From positions 1-33,095 of the forward strand of contig CALDZJ010000063.1 of the NCBI GenBank assembly GCA_937944055.1: 33,095 nt of DNA, given 5' to 3'. The DNA comes from an uncultured Verrucomicrobiales bacterium (GTDB lineage Bacteria > Verrucomicrobiota > Verrucomicrobiia > Verrucomicrobiales > Akkermansiaceae). Shown piece after piece: positions 3,292 to 11,369 of the stretch (its first letter is position 1; every line of letters starts with the position of its first letter). The translations under genes and the position numbers were made by a program. The notes beneath the pieces are model-generated. The model was not told the origin of the DNA and ran no database searches. It worked only from the letters and a program-made list of their open reading frames with translations.

Positions 3292-3678
3292 CTAAGAGCA
3301 GCGCTCTCGGACCATTTTTAGCAAGCGGAGAGGAGGAATCCCATAAAACCCCTTCATCTCAGTTGAGAAATGGGAGTAGTGCCGGAACCCTAGCTGCTCG
3401 GCGATCTCATGGAGATCATATCCTTCTTTCATCATCCTCCGCGCGAGAACGGCCCGATATTGGCGGAAGAATACCTTCGGCTTCATTCCCACCACCTTAT
3501 CGAGGGCCAGCTCAAAGTCTCGGACTGTTAAACCTAGCTTTTCAGCCACTCCATTCACCATAAAGCCCTCATTGAAAGCTAGTTTTAATACATCACGGCC
3601 CTCATCATCCAGCACCTGATCACCATTTCTGCTAAAGAATGAGCTTGAACTGTTGCCATTACCACGATTGCCGATCAT
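3292..3678 (-). CDS. Minimal AraC-type DNA-binding regulator
   Basis: A 128-residue protein that is essentially only an AraC/XylS DNA-binding domain. A Ser/Gly/Asn-rich tail (residues 1-20) is followed by a first helix-turn-helix (VNGVAEKLGLTVRDFELAL). The second is the typical EGYDLHEIAEQLGFRHYSHF segment, then KGFYGIPPLRLLK, the usual AraC C-terminal signature. There is no room for a ligand-binding or dimerisation domain, so any signal input must come from partners or from its own level. It is divergent from the methyltransferase-kinase-regulator operon, with 99 bp between starts, so control of that operon, of itself, or both is a reasonable inference. Confidence 0.85.
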   Translation of the reverse strand: MIGNRGNGNSSSSFFSRNGDQVLDDEGRDVLKLAFNEGFMVNGVAEKLGLTVRDFELALDKVVGMKPKVFFRQYRAVLARRMMKEGYDLHEIAEQLGFRHYSHFSTEMKGFYGIPPLRLLKMVRERCS

Positions 3679-3777: not shown

Positions 3778-5196
3778 ATGGCCGAGAATCTAATCCACCT
3801 AAACACCACCGTAGCCTGTAAAAATAGCCAAGGTCAACAAGTCGCCGCGAATGTCCTGAGGCTACGGCGCTACTCCGCCACCTTCGAGGTCTACAACCCC
3901 TTCAGCCTTCTTCAACTCTCCGAAGTCTTAAAAGGATTTCAAATTCGCCTCAACGATCGCATCATCTACTCCGGTGATGCCATCGTCTCTAACTTAGTAA
4001 ATACCGGCATTCTCCTGATCTGTGAAGTCACTCTCAACGATGCTTGGCTAGACATTGATTTTCTCTCCGATCGTGAAGGCTTCCTCTCTCTCGGGCAGCA
4101 ATTTTCAGAGTTCCTTGATGAATGGAGATCCGCAAACCAAGTTGACCCAAGATTCAAACTGATCACCGCAGACCTTCAAAGCCTCCTCGTAGGAGTGCAA
4201 CGCTGGATGGAGCGCGCTGATTTAGGTTTACGCACTTCGACCGCTGAGGAGCTCATCGAATTAGAAGTCAAAACCCTTACCGGTCTTGAAAGCCAACTCT
4301 CAGCACAAGTGCATGAAGCGATGACAAGCTTTGAAGACGCGGCTCGAAATGTCTCTCCTGATGACCAATCGGCTCACAAGTTTTATGTCCGCCGACAAAT
4401 CCACCCTCTTGTCCTTTGCTCTCCTTTTGCATATCGCACTTTTTATAAACCACTTGGCTATGCCGGTGACTATGAAATGGTGAATATGATGTTGCGCTCG
4501 CCATACGAAGGCGCATCTCTTTTCGCCAAATCGATCAATTGCGCCTTCCTAAAGAGCCCCCCTGTTGAAGCTCACAGAAACCGTATCACGTATCTGAAAA
4601 ATCTCCTTTGTGAAACGGCAGAAAACAGAAAGGGCAACAAGGTTCGGATTCTGAATTTAGGCTGCGGGCCTGCACATGAAGTCCAAGCCTTTCTAAGGGA
4701 TTCAGAATTGAGCGATCTCTGTGAATTTACCCTCCTCGATTTTAACGATGAAACGATCCGGTTCACAGGCCAAGTTCTGAATGACCTTAAAGAGACCCAC
4801 GGCAGGCAGGTTTCGGTGATACCGATCAAACGTTCAGTCCATCAATTACTCAAGCAAGGGAACAGCGGTGATGCCGATATGAATTGGGACAGCTATGACC
4901 TTGTCTACTGCGCAGGTCTTTATGACTACCTATCGCAGAAGGTCTGCCGACGGCTTACCGATATCTTCTACAAACTCGCGAAGCCAGGTGCTCGTGTTGT
5001 CATCACAAATGTCTCATCCACTAACCCCAGCATTGGCTGGATGGAGTTCTTACTCGAATGGAATTTAGTTTATCGAAATAACGACGAAATGTTAAACCTC
5101 GTTCCGAAAATGAATGAAGGCCCAAGGTCAAAAGTCCTCGCTGACACAACCGGCGTGAACCTCTTCCTCGAGATTGAGAAACCTAGCCTCAAATGA
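3778..5196 (+). CDS. SAM-dependent methyltransferase, PhcB-like (putative 3-OH fatty acid methyl ester signal synthase)
   Basis: A 472-residue protein. Residues 1 to about 100 form a beta-rich module that may be PilZ-like. The middle has the conserved block HPLVLCSPFAYRTFYKPLGYAGDYEMVNMM, which I associate with proteins annotated as 3-hydroxypalmitate methyl ester (EF) biosynthesis proteins. The C-terminal Rossmann methyltransferase begins with motif I, ILNLGCGP (about residues 291-298), followed by FTLLDFNDE (acidic motif II) and DLVYCAGLYDYL. In Ralstonia, PhcB methylates a 3-hydroxy fatty acid to make a quorum signal sensed by PhcS. The next gene starts in an ATGA overlap with this stop (5193-5196), so translation is coupled to the sensor kinase. 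The methyltransferase call is firm; the PhcB role rests on the conserved block and on the kinase and regulator genes that follow. Confidence 0.75.
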   Translation: MAENLIHLNTTVACKNSQGQQVAANVLRLRRYSATFEVYNPFSLLQLSEVLKGFQIRLNDRIIYSGDAIVSNLVNTGILLICEVTLNDAWLDIDFLSDREGFLSLGQQFSEFLDEWRSANQVDPRFKLITADLQSLLVGVQRWMERADLGLRTSTAEELIELEVKTLTGLESQLSAQVHEAMTSFEDAARNVSPDDQSAHKFYVRRQIHPLVLCSPFAYRTFYKPLGYAGDYEMVNMMLRSPYEGASLFAKSINCAFLKSPPVEAHRNRITYLKNLLCETAENRKGNKVRILNLGCGPAHEVQAFLRDSELSDLCEFTLLDFNDETIRFTGQVLNDLKETHGRQVSVIPIKRSVHQLLKQGNSGDADMNWDSYDLVYCAGLYDYLSQKVCRRLTDIFYKLAKPGARVVITNVSSTNPSIGWMEFLLEWNLVYRNNDEMLNLVPKMNEGPRSKVLADTTGVNLFLEIEKPSLK

Positions 5197-7838
5197 AGTC
5201 AGAGGAGGCAATACAGATCGGGAGCGACCGTGCACTTTGGCTCGCGTTCGAGAAAAGTGAAATCGAAACACAGAAGCTTCAATTGAAGCGGACCATCTTA
5301 TTTGCCGCTTGCTTCTCTCTCTTAGGTTTCGTCCTAGATTTTTTGATCTACCCAGAGTTCGTCGTCCCATTCTTCATCTGCCGCTGCATCGCAGTGACTC
5401 TCTTACTCGCAACATTCATTCCTCTGCGACTAGACCTAAAGCCTAAACTGATTCGACTCTTAAGCCACTGGCCTGTCTCCATTCCCATCTCTGCGATCAT
5501 GTTCTTCATCACATATGCCCAAGATGGAGAATCCACCTACTACGCAGGATTGAACCTCGTTCTCGTCGGAGCTTCCCTGATCCTACGCTGGCGCTTTATC
5601 GACTCAGTCATTAACGCAAGCCTCTGTCTAGTGACCTATCTAGGATTCGCCCTCTCACTTCCCGGTGACACATCCACGATTCTTACCAATGCCTTCTTCA
5701 TCATGGTCACTGCTGTCTTTGCATGTGCAGGCACCTTCTTCTACTCCCGCCTTCGTTATCAAGAATTCCTCCTTCGCCACCAACTTGATGCCAACCGGCA
5801 GGAACTCGAGGAAAACAACGCAAAACTTCAAGCGCTCGATGAGGCCAAAACACGCTTCTTTGCAAACATCAGTCACGAACTCCGAACTCCCTTAACCCTC
5901 ATTCTTGGACCAGTAGAGCAGCTCAAAACTCTCCCTTCTCTTCAGTCTGACCCAAAAGCGAGCACCATGATCGAAACCCTTTCTGAGAACGGTTATCGGC
6001 TCCTAAGACTCATCAACGATCTTCTCGACCTAGTCCGCCTCGATACCGGTGACATCCCTCTGCGTCCCGAAAATCTTGACCTCCCAAAGTTCCTAGACCT
6101 CCTCGGAATCAGCCTCCGCCCAATGGCCGAGACCCAGCAGATTTCACTTCAGATTCAAAGCAAGATCCCCAAAAACCCCGTTCAATACTACGACCGAGAC
6201 AAGCTCGAAAAAATCATTCTCAATCTCAGTATCAACGCTCTTAAATTCACCCCTGCGGGAGGCAAAGTTTCCCTAAATCTTCGCGAAGAAGACACAGACT
6301 TTATCTTAACCGTATCTGATACCGGTAAAGGAATGACCGATGAAGACCTCGAGAGAATCTTTGAACGATTTTGGCAAGCCGACGCTTCCTCAAAACGCAA
6401 AGCAAGAGGCACCGGAATCGGCCTAGCTTTAGTCAAGAGCCTCACTGAACGTCTCAACGGCAAAATTGATGTCAAATCAAGCCCTGGAATGGGCACCACC
6501 TTCACCCTCCGCTTTCCATCCGTCCTTCCTCCAAGTGAGCAAGACACGATTGAGACTGAACTGCACAAAGAGATCATCGCAGATGAGTTCGACGCCCTCC
6601 ACGAAAAAGCCCGCCTCGCCACCGCTAGTCCACCACAACATCAAACTGCACAAGCGGCTAGCCAGAACCTCCCTCTCCGCCCTAGCAACGGAGCTCCCCA
6701 ACTTCTCGTAGTCGATGATGAATCTAGCATGCGCCAATTCATCGTCTCGCAACTTGAAGATTATGAAATTCTTGAAGCCTCAGACGGAAAACAAGGCTGG
6801 GAACTTGCCAAACAACACTTGCCCGATCTGATCGTCCTAGACTTTATGATGCCTGAGATGGATGGCATGGAAGTTTGCCGCCTTCTCAGAAAGCACCCGC
6901 CCACCTCTCGCATCCCCATCGTCCTCGTCACCGCCCATGCAGGGGATGCTCCCCGTCTAGAAGCTCTGCAGGCGGGCGTGAATGACTTTCTCACCAAGCC
7001 ATTCTCATCCGTCGAGCTCCGCGCCCGGATCCGCAACCTCCTCATTACGGTCCAACACGAACGCGAAATCGCCGAGAGTAATACCAACCTCACTCAAGCT
7101 CTCGTGCAACTTCAAGAGAACGAGGAACAGCTCGTCCGAGCAGAAAAACTCACCTCTCTTGGGCGCATGAGCGCAGGCATCATTCACGAGGTGAACAATC
7201 CTCTCAACTACGCGAAAACCTCCATTCACTTGCTCAAAAGCTACCGCGATCTCATCCCAGCTGGAGAGCAAGCGGACTACGATGATACGATCGTAGACCT
7301 CAATGAAGGGGTCCAGCGAGTGATTGATATCATTACAGATCTCCGCGCCTTCACCCGAGGTGACGAGACCACCCGTCACCTCCTTCAGCTCCATAAAGTT
7401 GTCGCCAATACGCGTCGCCTCATCGCTAGTGATCTGGGAAGCGTAAGCTTCACCTGCGAGGTCCCAGAGGATCTGGAACTAGAGGGCAATGATAACCAAC
7501 TTTGCCAAGCCTTCATCAATCTCATTCAGAATGCCCTCCACGCAACCGCTGACCAAGATGATCCTAAAATCACCTTCACTGCTCAGGCCTCTCCGGCAGG
7601 AGGAATCGTCCTTCAAATCTCCGATAATGGCATCGGGATTTCTGCCGAGACCCAAAGCCAGATCTTTGATCCCTTTTTTACCACTCGCGATGTCGGCGAT
7701 GGCATGGGCCTAGGGCTCAGCCTTACCCTAAGAATCATCGAGGAACACCGCGCCAAAATCCATGTCGAAAGTGAACTCGGAAATGGCGCGACTTTCATCA
7801 TCTACTTCCCTCCTCCAAAGAACCCTTCAAATTTATAG
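5193..7838 (+). CDS. Six-TM hybrid sensor kinase HK-REC-HK (PhcS-PhcR-like fusion)
   Basis: An 881-residue inner-membrane signalling protein. Six hydrophobic segments are visible at about 34-54, 57-78, 93-109, 115-132, 137-156 and 162-185, with little periplasmic sequence; this is the sensor style of PhcS and CqsS-like receptors. A coiled segment leads to HisKA with phospho-acceptor His228 (NISHELRTPL) and a full ATPase (LNLSINALKFT, DTGKGM, GTGIGLAL). A REC domain follows with Asp550 (LIVLDFMMPEMDG) and the TKPFS lysine. A second complete kinase core has His665 (IIHEVNNPL), the N-box FINLIQNALHAT, DNGIGI and GMGLGLSL. In Ralstonia, PhcR is a REC domain joined to a kinase-like domain, so this gene reads as PhcS and PhcR in one chain. 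It overlaps the methyltransferase by four bases. Confidence 0.85.
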   Translation: MKSEEAIQIGSDRALWLAFEKSEIETQKLQLKRTILFAACFSLLGFVLDFLIYPEFVVPFFICRCIAVTLLLATFIPLRLDLKPKLIRLLSHWPVSIPISAIMFFITYAQDGESTYYAGLNLVLVGASLILRWRFIDSVINASLCLVTYLGFALSLPGDTSTILTNAFFIMVTAVFACAGTFFYSRLRYQEFLLRHQLDANRQELEENNAKLQALDEAKTRFFANISHELRTPLTLILGPVEQLKTLPSLQSDPKASTMIETLSENGYRLLRLINDLLDLVRLDTGDIPLRPENLDLPKFLDLLGISLRPMAETQQISLQIQSKIPKNPVQYYDRDKLEKIILNLSINALKFTPAGGKVSLNLREEDTDFILTVSDTGKGMTDEDLERIFERFWQADASSKRKARGTGIGLALVKSLTERLNGKIDVKSSPGMGTTFTLRFPSVLPPSEQDTIETELHKEIIADEFDALHEKARLATASPPQHQTAQAASQNLPLRPSNGAPQLLVVDDESSMRQFIVSQLEDYEILEASDGKQGWELAKQHLPDLIVLDFMMPEMDGMEVCRLLRKHPPTSRIPIVLVTAHAGDAPRLEALQAGVNDFLTKPFSSVELRARIRNLLITVQHEREIAESNTNLTQALVQLQENEEQLVRAEKLTSLGRMSAGIIHEVNNPLNYAKTSIHLLKSYRDLIPAGEQADYDDTIVDLNEGVQRVIDIITDLRAFTRGDETTRHLLQLHKVVANTRRLIASDLGSVSFTCEVPEDLELEGNDNQLCQAFINLIQNALHATADQDDPKITFTAQASPAGGIVLQISDNGIGISAETQSQIFDPFFTTRDVGDGMGLGLSLTLRIIEEHRAKIHVESELGNGATFIIYFPPPKNPSNL

Positions 7839-7920
7839 ATTTTTACAAAATCACCTTCTCTAACAGATCATAAAATATGTTTCTAAGTCCGTAGAACTAT
7901 CTATCCTCGCATACGACCTA

Positions 7921-9114
7921 ATGAATCCTTCGAGCCCGCACTCTCCACCTGCAAACAAGCCCATTATTCTCTTTGTCGATGACGAGGAAAAAACAAGAAA
8001 GCACTTCCGCCGACTCTTCGAAAAACAATTCAGAATCGTAGATGCAGCTGATGGCGTTGAGGCCCTTCGGGTTTTTCAAACAGAGCTCGACCAAATAGGT
8101 GTCATCGTCACTGACCAACGCATGCCCAACGAAACTGGCACCGAATTTCTTCAAAAAGCAGCTCTCTTAAAACCCAGCGTCATCCGCATCCTCTCAACCG
8201 CCTATGCTGATGTGGACGCAGCGATTGACTCAGTAAACAAAGGCGGGATTTATCGATATATCACCAAGCCTTGGGAAATCCCAGACCTAGAAGTGACCCT
8301 CACCAGAGCTGTCGAACTTTACGAACTTCAAAACGAACGCGACGAACTACTCCGGCAAAAACTCTCGAGCTTACAAAATCTCGCCGCGACCGAACGGATC
8401 CACTCTCTTGCCGCGCTCTCGGTCTTTCAAAACACAGGCCTTCGTCATGCTTCCCGTGCTCTCCAAATCCTTGTTCAGCTCGCTGACCAACCTGAACTTA
8501 ACTCTGCTAACACCATTGGCGAAACACCTCCATGGTCGCTCGTCTACACACAACATCGCCATTTTCTCGAAGTCGCACACACTCTTCTTCCCTCGGATCT
8601 GACTACCGGTCCCGATCTTGATTCTTCGCAACTCACCAATGCCTCGGCAATTCTAAAAAATGCCTGTGAGTCCGACCCTCGCTTTCAATGGAATGACAGC
8701 GGGATTCAGAAAATCCAATGGCCTGGCCCTCAGACCCTCGCGGCCCCCATCATGGAGGGACTCATCCGAGGAATCGGCGCCATTCTCTCTCAAGCCAACA
8801 CCATCCACGCCCAAGAAACGGCCCAAGGGATCGAACTCTCAGTCTCAGCCTTGTCTCTCTCCCACGGACTCCAGCCGCTCATCGTTCCACAGTTCCCAGA
8901 CGGACAGGAAAAAAACCGCTGTCTTGCACTGACTGCCGCCTTCCTCACGTGGACTCACCACGGTGGGAACATTGAAATTCTTCCCGATCACGCAAGCCGC
9001 ACGGTCACCCTACGTCTTTCGCTCGCTCCCGCCGGAGCCGTAAATGATCCATGGGAGACCCTTGCCGCAGACCTCGTCGCGAATGATCTCTTTTGGCAAC
9101 GCCACCTCGACTAA
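7921..9114 (+). CDS. Response regulator with degenerate kinase-like C-terminus (PhcQ-like)
   Basis: A 397-residue protein. Residues 10-125 are a REC domain: acidic pair VDDEE near the start, phospho-acceptor Asp65 (IVTDQRMP), and YRYITKPW with the conserved lysine. A helical segment (QNERDELLRQKLSSLQNLAATERIHSLAAL) and a long C-terminal region follow. The end (LALTAAFLTWTHHGGNIEI, then TVTLRLSL) resembles the last part of a histidine-kinase ATPase, but the N-box and DxGxG motifs are not visible, so catalysis is unlikely. No DNA-binding domain is seen; output would go through protein contacts. It lies 82 bp after the hybrid kinase and matches the position of phcQ in the Ralstonia phcBSRQ order. 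Its stop overlaps the stop of the convergent FadL gene by three bases. Confidence 0.7.
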   Translation: MNPSSPHSPPANKPIILFVDDEEKTRKHFRRLFEKQFRIVDAADGVEALRVFQTELDQIGVIVTDQRMPNETGTEFLQKAALLKPSVIRILSTAYADVDAAIDSVNKGGIYRYITKPWEIPDLEVTLTRAVELYELQNERDELLRQKLSSLQNLAATERIHSLAALSVFQNTGLRHASRALQILVQLADQPELNSANTIGETPPWSLVYTQHRHFLEVAHTLLPSDLTTGPDLDSSQLTNASAILKNACESDPRFQWNDSGIQKIQWPGPQTLAAPIMEGLIRGIGAILSQANTIHAQETAQGIELSVSALSLSHGLQPLIVPQFPDGQEKNRCLALTAAFLTWTHHGGNIEILPDHASRTVTLRLSLAPAGAVNDPWETLAADLVANDLFWQRHLD

Positions 9115-10334
9115 AACTTGAAATGGCATGAGGCATTAATCGCTTGATTGAAGGTCTCAAATCTTCCATTTGCAGTTTCTCCGGCTGGACTTGGCGTATT
9201 CCCTGTCACGGTCCGCCCTCCATTGTAGGCAAAGTGATAAGCCAAGGCCCAGCCCCACTCATCACCACGGTGGCCGAATCCGATGCTCCCTAAATGAAGA
9301 TCTGAATCAGGATTCGTCGGTGACAAAGTCTCATTTGGCACCGAGTTCTCACTGTAAATATAACCAACACTCACCCAGTAACCCTTACCCAATTGACGAG
9401 TCACCCCGAGCTCATACATAAAGCCTGACTCATACTCGAAAGGCAAATCCACATCCCCAAAGGGAGTCCCCACAAAGGTCGAAGTGTTCACCCGGTCCCA
9501 ATTCGTCCAATCCACATTCACCTCAATATTCCAATCCGGCGTAGGACGATAAGAGATCCCAAAATCAATATTATCAGGGAACCTCAGGCTCGCATTCGTC
9601 GCTTGAAAATCCTCTGGCAACGGAGTCCCTAGCACCCGTGACTCCCCCTTATAATTCGCCTCAGTCTCTGAACGGTAACTAAGACCGATGGACCATTTTT
9701 CATGAGGCCGGTAGAGCAGGCCCAGATTAAAGCCCACCAGAATGTCATCACCCTCATAGCGGAACTGGCCACCTCCGCCCGGGACTAAAGCCTGCTGGAG
9801 CTCCACCTCTGAATAATTAAACGTCAGACCGGCTGCCAGCGATAAGGAGTCATTCACCTCGTAAGCAGCTACGGTATTAAAAGTCGCATAAAGGAGAAGG
9901 GCCTCCTCAGCTTTCGTCGCAAAGGGCGTGTCACTCCCCCAATCGATCCCCAGCCCAAAGGGCGCATAAAGCCCCATTCCAAATGACCACGGAGAACTTT
10001 CCGGCGAATAAACATAGTAAATTTGAGGCACCGCCTGCACCGCAGGATCGGTGCTAGCTCGCCGCCCATCAGGAGCCGTGAAATCGACACCAGTTGTAAT
10101 GAAATAGGATCCAAAGCTCACATGGTGACCTTCCAATTGAGTGATCCCAGCCGGATTGTAATAGAGAGCAGAGGGATTATCAGCCGTCGCCACAAAAGCA
10201 TTTCCCCGCGCAATTCCCTCAGGATCTTGATTCGGCAATCGGAAACCCACCCCTTCCACCACGGATCCTAAAAGAAAGAAAAAAGCCCCACCTTTACCAA
10301 AACTTCCGATCTTCATCGCCGTCTCGTAGCCCAT
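9111..10334 (-). CDS. FadL/OmpP1/TodX-family outer-membrane transporter
   Basis: A 407-residue beta-barrel protein of the long-chain fatty acid porin family. Residues 1 to about 30 contain a hydrophobic export signal (GGAFFFLLGSVVEG); the internal Met7 (MKIGSFGKGG) is an equally likely start. The family signature follows: GFRLPNQDPEGIARGNAFVA, then ADNPSALYYNPAGITQLEG, the usual N-terminal hatch segment. Amphipathic strands fill the rest, and the protein ends in FKF, an aromatic terminus typical of outer-membrane barrels. FadL proteins move hydrophobic compounds such as fatty acids, and in some bacteria long-chain acyl signals, across the outer membrane. The ATG directly follows the TAA stop of the acyltransferase gene, so the two are one operon. 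It converges with the phc-like operon. Confidence 0.9.
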   Translation of the reverse strand: MGYETAMKIGSFGKGGAFFFLLGSVVEGVGFRLPNQDPEGIARGNAFVATADNPSALYYNPAGITQLEGHHVSFGSYFITTGVDFTAPDGRRASTDPAVQAVPQIYYVYSPESSPWSFGMGLYAPFGLGIDWGSDTPFATKAEEALLLYATFNTVAAYEVNDSLSLAAGLTFNYSEVELQQALVPGGGGQFRYEGDDILVGFNLGLLYRPHEKWSIGLSYRSETEANYKGESRVLGTPLPEDFQATNASLRFPDNIDFGISYRPTPDWNIEVNVDWTNWDRVNTSTFVGTPFGDVDLPFEYESGFMYELGVTRQLGKGYWVSVGYIYSENSVPNETLSPTNPDSDLHLGSIGFGHRGDEWGWALAYHFAYNGGRTVTGNTPSPAGETANGRFETFNQAINASCHFKF

Positions 10335-11369
10335 TTATTGGCAAGAAACAATCGATATTCCTTCCTGGATCTCGCCCAGCATGCTCGCTCTCCAATCGCC
10401 CAACCACTGCTCCACCACCTCTTGAGAAGTCGTCAAATCAGGATGAGCTTGGACAGTCATACTCAAGCGACCCTGAAAGGTCACCACCCCTGCACTGAAA
10501 GGCAGAAATCGTAACACAGGCGCCACAAACAACCACCCCCCTTGCCGCTCAGGATCTTGAACTCCATCCTCCAGATCCCACACACCCAAATTCGAAAACA
10601 CCCCTAAATTCCATTCGGCCGTCGCCCTGCCTTTCCGCACAATTTTTCTTTTCAAGCATGCTGGAATCACCGCGCCCAGCGCATACGACTTCCAATTTGC
10701 CCAATGTTCACCCGTCGAGAGTTTGTCGTTAATTTCACGCTGCACCTCCCCGCTCCCGCCTTCAGCCGTCACCTTGATCGACAGGTAACTACTGTGATTT
10801 TGCGTATCACGCTCGCGCCTCAGCGGCCCACGTAAATTGACTGGCACCATCCAAGGAATCACCGCCTTCTCATTCTGCAAATCCTTCCTAACCGCCCCAT
10901 CTAGCATCTTTAAAAGCACAGCATTTAAACTCACCCCCAGCGCTCGTGCCCTCTTTTTCAGAGACTCCGTTTCTTCCTCAGAAAAGACATGCCAAGCCCG
11001 CACCGGATCCGGCAATGCTTCATCACTCAGCCTCCGCCTTTCTCTGCCTAGATCCTTCCACTTCAAGATTTCTTGAGAAGCCCTTCGAGAAGCAAAATGC
11101 TTAGGAAGTGATTTCAAAAAAGGCCACCACGAAGCCTCCTGAATGCGCTCATTCTTCGGAAGCTCCTCCACCTCCACACCCTGACCTCGTAAAATATCCG
11201 CAAAGCCACCGATCCCATCGAACTCCGCGTGACTCACCTTGATCCACTCAAGTTCCGCCCTCCTTTCTGAAACCTTAGCAAAACGAATCATCGTATCATC
11301 GCCCGTCGCAGCGACTGCTCTAAACCACGACTGAATCGGATCGGACTTAAAAAAAGTAAACATCCTCAC
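10335..11369 (-). CDS. Condensation/CAT-like acyltransferase
   Basis: A 344-residue protein with the acyltransferase active-site pattern HxxxDG (HAEFDG, His47, Asp51, Gly52) followed by IGGFADIL. WMVPVNLRGPL and FSNLGVWDL come later, as in the condensation-domain, wax-ester-synthase and alcohol-acyltransferase superfamily. Such enzymes move an acyl group from CoA or a carrier to an alcohol or amine; the substrate is unknown. The first codon is GTG at 11369, with ATG two codons later; AGGA lies just upstream. In this superfamily the HxxxDG motif usually lies 100 or more residues from the start, so this copy looks short at its N-terminus. The frame upstream is closed by TGA at 11421-11423. It sits in an operon with the FadL gene. 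Confidence 0.72.
   Translation of the reverse strand: MRMFTFFKSDPIQSWFRAVAATGDDTMIRFAKVSERRAELEWIKVSHAEFDGIGGFADILRGQGVEVEELPKNERIQEASWWPFLKSLPKHFASRRASQEILKWKDLGRERRRLSDEALPDPVRAWHVFSEEETESLKKRARALGVSLNAVLLKMLDGAVRKDLQNEKAVIPWMVPVNLRGPLRRERDTQNHSSYLSIKVTAEGGSGEVQREINDKLSTGEHWANWKSYALGAVIPACLKRKIVRKGRATAEWNLGVFSNLGVWDLEDGVQDPERQGGWLFVAPVLRFLPFSAGVVTFQGRLSMTVQAHPDLTTSQEVVEQWLGDWRASMLGEIQEGISIVSCQ

What the first reader, a model, noticed from the sequence alone, without database searches (positions are those of the whole stretch)
3778..9114. PhcBSRQ-like quorum-sensing cassette in a probable Verrucomicrobiota, with sensor and regulator fused
Seen: a methyltransferase with a FYKPLGYAGDYEMVNMM block, an ATGA-coupled six-TM kinase of order HK-REC-HK, then a REC protein with a kinase-like but degenerate tail. 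Known: Ralstonia phcB, phcS, phcR and phcQ encode a 3-OH fatty acid methyl ester synthase, a six-TM sensor kinase, a REC protein with a kinase-like output, and a further REC protein, in that order. Inference: this is the same logic with PhcS and PhcR joined into one 881-residue phosphorelay, so a lipid methyl ester signal may exist far outside the Betaproteobacteria.
Basis: partly seen in the sequence, partly recalled or inferred. Interest (0 to 1): 0.85.

Follow-up and report, generated by a model that had tools for sequence, protein, structure and literature searches.

The report
Lipid-signal quorum-sensing cassette in Verrucomicrobiota
A set of neighbouring genes that looks like the fatty-acid-ester chemical signalling system of Ralstonia and its relatives is present in many distantly related environmental bacteria, often beside an outer-membrane fatty-acid gate, so this kind of bacterial communication may be older and wider than thought.

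Summary
The three genes are real and form a conserved cassette. Gene 1 (3778-5196) is a full-length PhcB-family methyltransferase (35-39% identical to 25 Burkholderiales-type PhcB). Gene 2 (5193-7838) is a PhcS-type sensor: the same conserved membrane domain, and its last kinase groups with PhcS kinases, but a second kinase-receiver module is inserted between them. Gene 3 (7921-9114) is PhcQ-like: its receiver groups with PhcQ/PhcR, and its tail looks like a decayed kinase. So 'PhcS fused to PhcR' is wrong in detail: it is PhcS with an inserted phosphorelay, PhcQ is kept, and no PhcR was found.

In the class sample, 81 of 384 genomes (46 of 171 genera) match the synthase. Of 79 full-type loci examined, 77 have the sensor directly downstream and 74 a PhcQ-type receiver. 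A FadL outer-membrane lipid channel lies within 10 kb in 39 of 77 genomes (0.4 expected by chance). Two genomes keep sensor and receiver where the synthase is missing. Burkholderiales PhcB nests inside the Verrucomicrobial synthases (AU p 0.034, modest).

That the signal is a 3-hydroxy fatty acid methyl ester is inference. PhcA is not demonstrated, and the output is unknown.

The parts
3778..5196 (+). PhcB-type class I SAM-dependent methyltransferase (472 aa), putative signal synthase
   Evidence: Full-length homology to Burkholderiales-type PhcB (35-39% in A3); trees; AlphaFold model with a Rossmann methyltransferase domain at about 289-467
3805..4035 (+). N-terminal six-strand beta domain of the methyltransferase (residues 10-86); PhcB R22 lies in the matching part of the Burkholderiales proteins
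   Evidence: AlphaFold model, modest confidence; aligned in A1; no family for such a domain recurs among the 8 members scanned with Pfam
5193..7838 (+). PhcS-type sensor with inserted phosphorelay: membrane domain, HK1, receiver, HK2 (881 aa)
   Evidence: Pfam, alignments A2 and A5, kinase tree
5193..5807 (+). Membrane sensor domain shared with PhcS (invariant D49, R64, S114, Y117, L122, Y149)
   Evidence: A5, 15 sequences including 5 Burkholderiales PhcS
5817..6530 (+). HK1, first histidine kinase module (His228); does not group with the PhcS kinase
6705..7034 (+). Receiver of the hybrid (Asp550)
   Evidence: Pfam Response_reg; receiver tree
7101..7820 (+). HK2, second histidine kinase module (His665); groups with PhcS kinases
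   Evidence: kinase tree
7921..9114 (+). PhcQ-like protein: receiver (Asp65) plus decayed kinase-like tail
   Evidence: A4 with 17 Burkholderiales-type PhcQ, 29-32% identity; receiver tree; tail comparison; AlphaFold tail of low confidence
3292..3678 (-). Small AraC-type HTH protein, divergent from the synthase; candidate DNA-binding partner
   Evidence: Pfam HTH_18 E 1.2e-14; homologue in 11 of 77 relatives' loci, 10 of them in loci of the window's own family (families); kept next to the sensor in two synthase-less loci
9111..10334 (-). FadL/OMPP1-type outer-membrane hydrophobic-compound channel
   Evidence: Pfam PF03349 159.5 bits; a FadL-family gene within 10 kb of the synthase in 39 of 77 relatives
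10335..11369 (-). Wax-ester-synthase/PapA-like acyltransferase with an SHAEFDG motif, beside FadL
   Evidence: Weak PapA_C and acyl_WS_DGAT matches, below cut-offs; homologue in 5 of 77 relatives' loci; an xHxxxDG motif in the window and 4 of those 5 (the fifth is cut by the end of the fetched stretch)

Best explanation
This is a Phc-type cell-to-cell signalling cassette. The PhcB-type methyltransferase most likely methylates a fatty-acid-derived acid (by analogy a 3-hydroxy fatty acid) to make a hydrophobic signal. In about half of the genomes a nearby FadL channel probably helps it cross the outer membrane. The membrane domain of the 881-aa PhcS-type kinase senses it. Phosphate then flows inside that protein along HK1, receiver and HK2, and to the separate PhcQ-like receiver, whose decayed kinase tail acts as a protein-binding output, not as an enzyme. 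Shown: homology of each part, gene order, dedicated synthase-sensor linkage, FadL linkage, tail decay (indirectly). Inferred: the substrate, the direction of phosphate flow, the role of FadL, and the output, for which the divergent AraC-type protein is a candidate in this family.
For: Synthase: 35-39% to 25 Burkholderiales-type PhcB over full length. Cupriavidus carries the published phc operon (C. necator JMP134, 56-75% to R. solanacearum, PMC2842291, passages; JMP134 itself not fetched). The two reference PhcB checked carry R22 and the two reference PhcS a His at 231-232, matching PhcB R22 and PhcS H230 in papers. Order B-S-Q in 80 of 80 Burkholderiales-type loci, an R-like ORF in 76 of 80. 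Verrucomicrobial loci: sensor next door in 77 of 79, PhcQ-type receiver in 74 of 79, plain PhcS form without the insert in 13 of 79. The sensor domain is in 90 of 384 genomes, 9 of them weak matches; of the 81 with strong matches 76 also have the synthase. FadL within 10 kb in 39 of 77 genomes, 22 of 44 genera, 16 of 29 families; expected 0.40; it is the sole FadL in 26. G566 and G597 keep AraC, sensor and receiver without the synthase. Evidence in Sinorhizobium fredii suggests that FadL takes up long-chain AHL signals (PMC9938287, passages).
Against: No chemistry. PhcB R22 is Ala in the window. No PhcR. Only one LysR-type protein in the window genome, not shown to be PhcA. FadL is absent from the 80 Burkholderiales-type loci and from the 8 loci with a sensor but no adjacent synthase, not near the synthase in 38 of 77 genomes, and not found at E 0.001 in 16 of 77. 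Cupriavidus CH34 has phcBSRQ, yet 3-OH PAME itself could not be isolated from it (PMC2864759), so even close homologues may make another ester. The tail model is of low confidence (mean pLDDT 62.9).
Confidence: 0.68

Rival explanations
1. Same circuit, different chemistry: the synthase methylates another hydrophobic acid (non-hydroxylated, branched or aromatic acid), so it works like Phc but the signal is not a 3-hydroxy fatty acid methyl ester.
For: The family is broad and the window differs at R22; CH34 may make a structural variant (PMC2864759); a WS/DGAT-like acyltransferase sits beside FadL in the window and in 5 of 77 relatives' loci.
Against: FadL linkage favours a fatty or otherwise hydrophobic product, but FadL-type channels also carry aromatics (title and abstract start of PMC7728783), so it does not decide.
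Confidence: 0.2
2. The methyltransferase is not a signal synthase but modifies the sensor or another protein (CheR-like adaptation); its N-terminal beta domain would sense an internal ligand.
For: CheR is among weak Pfam matches in 3 of 8 members; a beta domain precedes the enzyme; one homologue carries its own receiver domain (L037).
Against: The closest characterised relative, PhcB, makes a diffusible ester (PMC8578825, passages); sensor loci without a synthase exist; CheR matches are weak (best E 0.0011).
Confidence: 0.09
3. The genes are PhcS and PhcR fused plus a further receiver.
For: Domain order HK-REC-HK looks like PhcS followed by PhcR; one relative has the split TM-HK1 and REC-HK2 (L032).
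Against: Kinase and receiver trees place HK2 with PhcS kinases, and PhcR's receiver with gene 3's receiver, not with the hybrid's. Plain TM-HK2 sensors occur in 13 of 79 loci.
Confidence: 0.05

Closest known systems
Phc quorum-sensing system of Ralstonia and Cupriavidus (phcBSRQ and phcA)
   Same: PhcB-type synthase of about the same length and domains, PhcS membrane domain and kinase, PhcQ-type receiver, same order
   Different: Kinase-receiver module inserted in PhcS, no PhcR, no demonstrated PhcA, FadL beside the cassette, different phylum
Leptospira LvrA/LvrB hybrid two-component pair (LvrB recalled, not tested)
   Same: The LvrA hybrid-kinase model matches residues 194-873 at 318.7 bits
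   Different: Far below the LvrA cut-off of 1200 bits; synthase partnership in Leptospira not tested here
FadL-assisted uptake of long-chain AHL in rhizobia (PMC9938287)
   Same: FadL-family channel tied to a hydrophobic bacterial signal
   Different: There the signal is an AHL and the link is from mutants; here it is genome linkage to a methyltransferase and kinase cassette

Membership tests
Phc quorum-sensing system | PhcB-type methyltransferase over its full length | tested here: met
   35-39% identity to 25 Burkholderiales-type PhcB; trees
Phc quorum-sensing system | PhcB makes a 3-hydroxy fatty acid methyl ester | not testable with these tools
   needs chemistry
Phc quorum-sensing system | PhcS: membrane sensor domain followed by its kinase | tested here: met
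   shared membrane domain and kinase clade, with an HK1-REC insert between them
Phc quorum-sensing system | PhcR: receiver with kinase-like output | tested here: not met
   neither kinase of the window groups with the PhcR kinase-like clade; an R-like ORF was also undetected in 4 of 80 Burkholderiales-type loci
Phc quorum-sensing system | PhcQ: receiver plus uncharacterised tail at the end of the operon | tested here: met
   A4 alignment, 29-32% identity to 17 PhcQ; receiver tree; tail hhalign 72%, E 3.4e-5 over 183 columns
Phc quorum-sensing system | Gene order B-S-(R)-Q | tested here: met
   in the window; 74 of 79 full-type loci carry a PhcQ-type receiver on the synthase's strand within the fetched stretch (in L183 it is upstream); R missing
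Phc quorum-sensing system | LysR-type regulator PhcA | tested here: inconclusive
   one LysR-type gene in the window genome, not compared with PhcA
FadL/OMPP1 outer-membrane channel (window 9111-10334) | Pfam PF03349 over its curated cut-off | tested here: met
   159.5 bits against 29.7
Leptospira LvrA hybrid kinase | NCBIfam NF047465 over cut-off | tested here: not met
   318.7 bits against 1200

The most novel reading that the evidence does not exclude
Phc-type lipid-ester signalling is an old, widespread system of Verrucomicrobiota, with a FadL channel as its outer-membrane gate and with receiver-only eavesdropping lineages. The Ralstonia/Cupriavidus version is a late, simplified branch acquired by transfer, which later gained PhcR and PhcA.
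Probability: 0.35. Interest if true: 0.86.

Novelty: new variant of a known kind. Interest (0 to 1): 0.74.

Why it matters
A published survey of Pseudomonadota places the phc cluster in Betaproteobacteria (PMC10653808, passages). Here the same synthase-sensor-receiver core is found in another class, where 46 of 171 sampled genera match the synthase, and the Betaproteobacterial synthase sits inside that diversity in my trees. If the product is a lipid ester, a phylum common in soils, waters and guts (recalled) gains a testable quorum-sensing system. FadL linkage gives a direct hypothesis for how such a greasy signal crosses the outer membrane; one search for phcB with FadL listed a single unrelated paper. 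It also offers a weakly supported guess for the unknown tail of PhcQ: a decayed kinase.

Tried and rejected

Dropped rows: G414 (synthase at a contig end) was not fetched. G234 (lone full-type synthase, L038) is in the 79-locus count but not in the 77-genome FadL count; nor is the window genome. Short synthases (L039-L044, L232-L234) were left out of the 79. The adjacency script scored L031 'none' because of an early start in an overlapping ORF; searches show the full sensor there, so I count 77: 60 hybrid (one, L226, with a broken start), 13 plain, 3 membrane-HK1 and 1 broken (L205). One search, a profile search of the five sensor-only genomes, found no synthase, but the tool warns that it held no positive genome in that call.

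Full report
Observation. Gene 1 is 472 aa with weak Pfam methyltransferase matches. Gene 2 overlaps its stop by ATGA and holds kinase, receiver and second kinase. Gene 3 starts 82 bases downstream with a receiver and a tail that no Pfam model recognises. The window is contig C63 of a 2.59 Mb, 108-contig assembly.

Are they Phc? A first survey found the synthase in 16 of 240 genomes of the phylum sample, 13 of them (window included) with full-type matches. A plasmid search found one full-length homologue outside, in Paraburkholderia graminis, beside a kinase, a lone receiver and a receiver with tail. In all 80 the order is PhcB, PhcS, PhcQ, some genes in pieces, with an R-like ORF in 76, often a short piece in Paraburkholderia. 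A sample of 60 genomes from the genus of Cupriavidus necator UYPR2.512 all matched PhcB, a few in broken form. Cupriavidus carries the published operon: C. necator JMP134 has phcBSRQ at 56-75% identity to R. solanacearum (PMC2842291, passages), and CH34 has it too (PMC2864759, passage). Published mutation positions (PMC6989110, passages) imply, by my arithmetic, a phcB of about 1.4 kb and about 2.5 kb for phcS plus phcR, matching these gene sizes. Two reference PhcB have R at 22 and two reference PhcS their His at 231-232, against R22 and H230 in the papers.

Gene 1 is 35-39% identical to 25 Burkholderiales-type PhcB along its length. The model shows a beta domain, a helical stretch and a Rossmann methyltransferase domain (mean pLDDT 74.6). 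PhcB R22 is Ala in the window.

Gene 2. Fifteen membrane domains, five of them from Burkholderiales PhcS, share D49, R64, S114, Y117, L122 and Y149 (window numbering). In the kinase tree HK2 and PhcS kinases form one clade (28 rows, SH-aLRT 95), HK1 forms a separate clade (12 rows, 98), and the PhcR kinase-like domains another (12 rows, 100). The receiver tree, which has few columns and long-branch warnings, puts gene 3 with PhcQ and PhcR (44 rows, 96) and the hybrid's receiver elsewhere. Both are quick trees. So gene 2 is best read as PhcS with an HK1-receiver insert. Plain membrane-HK2 sensors without the insert occur in 13 of 79 loci, and one relative splits the hybrid in two (L032).

Gene 3 aligns with 17 PhcQ at 29-32%. 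Its tail does not match the kinase profile directly; 70 of 99 tails of this receiver class do (window among the misses). The visible alignments show many tails with an H-box but an altered N-box and G2 box (output cut, judged by eye). Window-type tails (6 sequences) match those tails (99.1%, E 6.8e-19), and those match HK2 (99.9%, E 4.5e-34). PhcQ tails match window-type tails weakly (72%, E 3.4e-5) and HK2 not at all (0.4%). The window's output domain is therefore probably a decayed kinase that binds partners; for PhcQ itself this is only a guess. In Ralstonia PhcQ binds PhcA (PMC13320629, listing, passages).

Co-occurrence. In the class sample 81 of 384 genomes and 46 of 171 genera match the synthase. 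I examined 79 full-type loci (window, L027-L038, L166-L231). The sensor domain is directly downstream in 77: 60 hybrid, 13 plain, 3 membrane-HK1 (two of these cut by a contig end), 1 broken; the exceptions are L038 and L199. A PhcQ-type receiver on the same strand is in 74. Searching the membrane domain alone gave 90 of 384 genomes, 9 of them weak. Five genomes had a strong sensor but no synthase match: G566, G597, G574, G411 and G346. G574 is at a contig start and says nothing. In G566 and G597 the AraC gene, sensor and receiver remain side by side with the synthase missing: candidate receiver-only lineages, in assemblies 98% and 95% complete. The same-genus genome G534 had no match to either.

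FadL. The gene after the cassette is a FadL-type channel (159.5 bits). Its homologue lies in 37 of 77 relatives' loci; among neighbour clusters it comes third after the sensor and synthase (34 of 78 loci). Whole-genome search of 77 genomes found FadL in 61 at E 0.001 and in 59 over the cut-off. It lies within 10 kb of the synthase in 39 of 77, in 22 of 44 genera and 16 of 29 families, against 0.40 expected if placed at random, and in 26 it is the only copy over the cut-off. Relatedness inflates such counts, but position and strand vary. Against it: 38 of 77 lack a near FadL, and neither the 80 Burkholderiales-type loci nor the 8 loci with a sensor but no adjacent synthase hold one. Evidence in Sinorhizobium fredii suggests FadL takes up long-chain AHLs (PMC9938287, passages).

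Evolution. In a quick 96-row tree and a careful 46-row tree, Burkholderiales PhcB sits inside the Verrucomicrobial full-type synthases (100/98 with the group of L217, L224, L033, L034, L222 and L218 in the careful tree). Holding the Verrucomicrobial rows together is rejected at p 0.034. This is modest: I chose the test after seeing the first tree, the outgroups are far, one falls inside, and other phyla are not sampled.

Mechanism. Shown: the parts, their homology, order and linkage. Inferred: gene 1 makes a fatty-acid-derived methyl ester; FadL helps it pass the outer membrane; the sensor domain binds it; phosphate passes through the internal relay and to gene 3; gene 3's tail acts by binding. 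No PhcA was shown; the genome has one LysR-type gene. The small divergent AraC-type gene, with homologues in 11 of 77 loci, 10 of them in the window's family, is the best local candidate for DNA binding.

Verdict.

Noticed in passing
L236 (G566) and L237 (G597): AraC gene, sensor and PhcQ-type receiver adjacent but no synthase there, and none found in these genomes: candidate receiver-only lineages.
   Followed up: partly
L240, 5274-6854: In G346 an FAD-dependent oxidoreductase-like gene stands directly upstream of the sensor where the synthase would be, with a LolA-like gene before it on the other strand (names by eye, no search).
   Followed up: no
L037, 2089-4146: A synthase carrying its own N-terminal receiver domain (685 aa), suggesting phosphorylation control of signal synthesis.
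   Followed up: no
L039-L041, L233, L234: A second, short (317-319 aa) synthase type in genus g7: beside a plain PhcS-type sensor and receiver in three of five; in G187 and G605 such a pair is on another contig (L242, L241).
   Followed up: partly
L077, L105, L120: Janthinobacterium loci with PhcB, PhcS and PhcQ and no detected PhcR: the arrangement nearest to the window's, in Betaproteobacteria.
   Followed up: no
window 10335-11369: WS/DGAT-like acyltransferase paired with FadL, with homologues in 5 of 77 relatives' loci, all 5 of which also hold FadL.
   Followed up: partly
L033-L035, L212, L218, L220, L222, L223: Most of the sister group of Burkholderiales PhcB carries two PhcQ-type receivers plus a third receiver-kinase gene after the hybrid sensor.
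   Followed up: no
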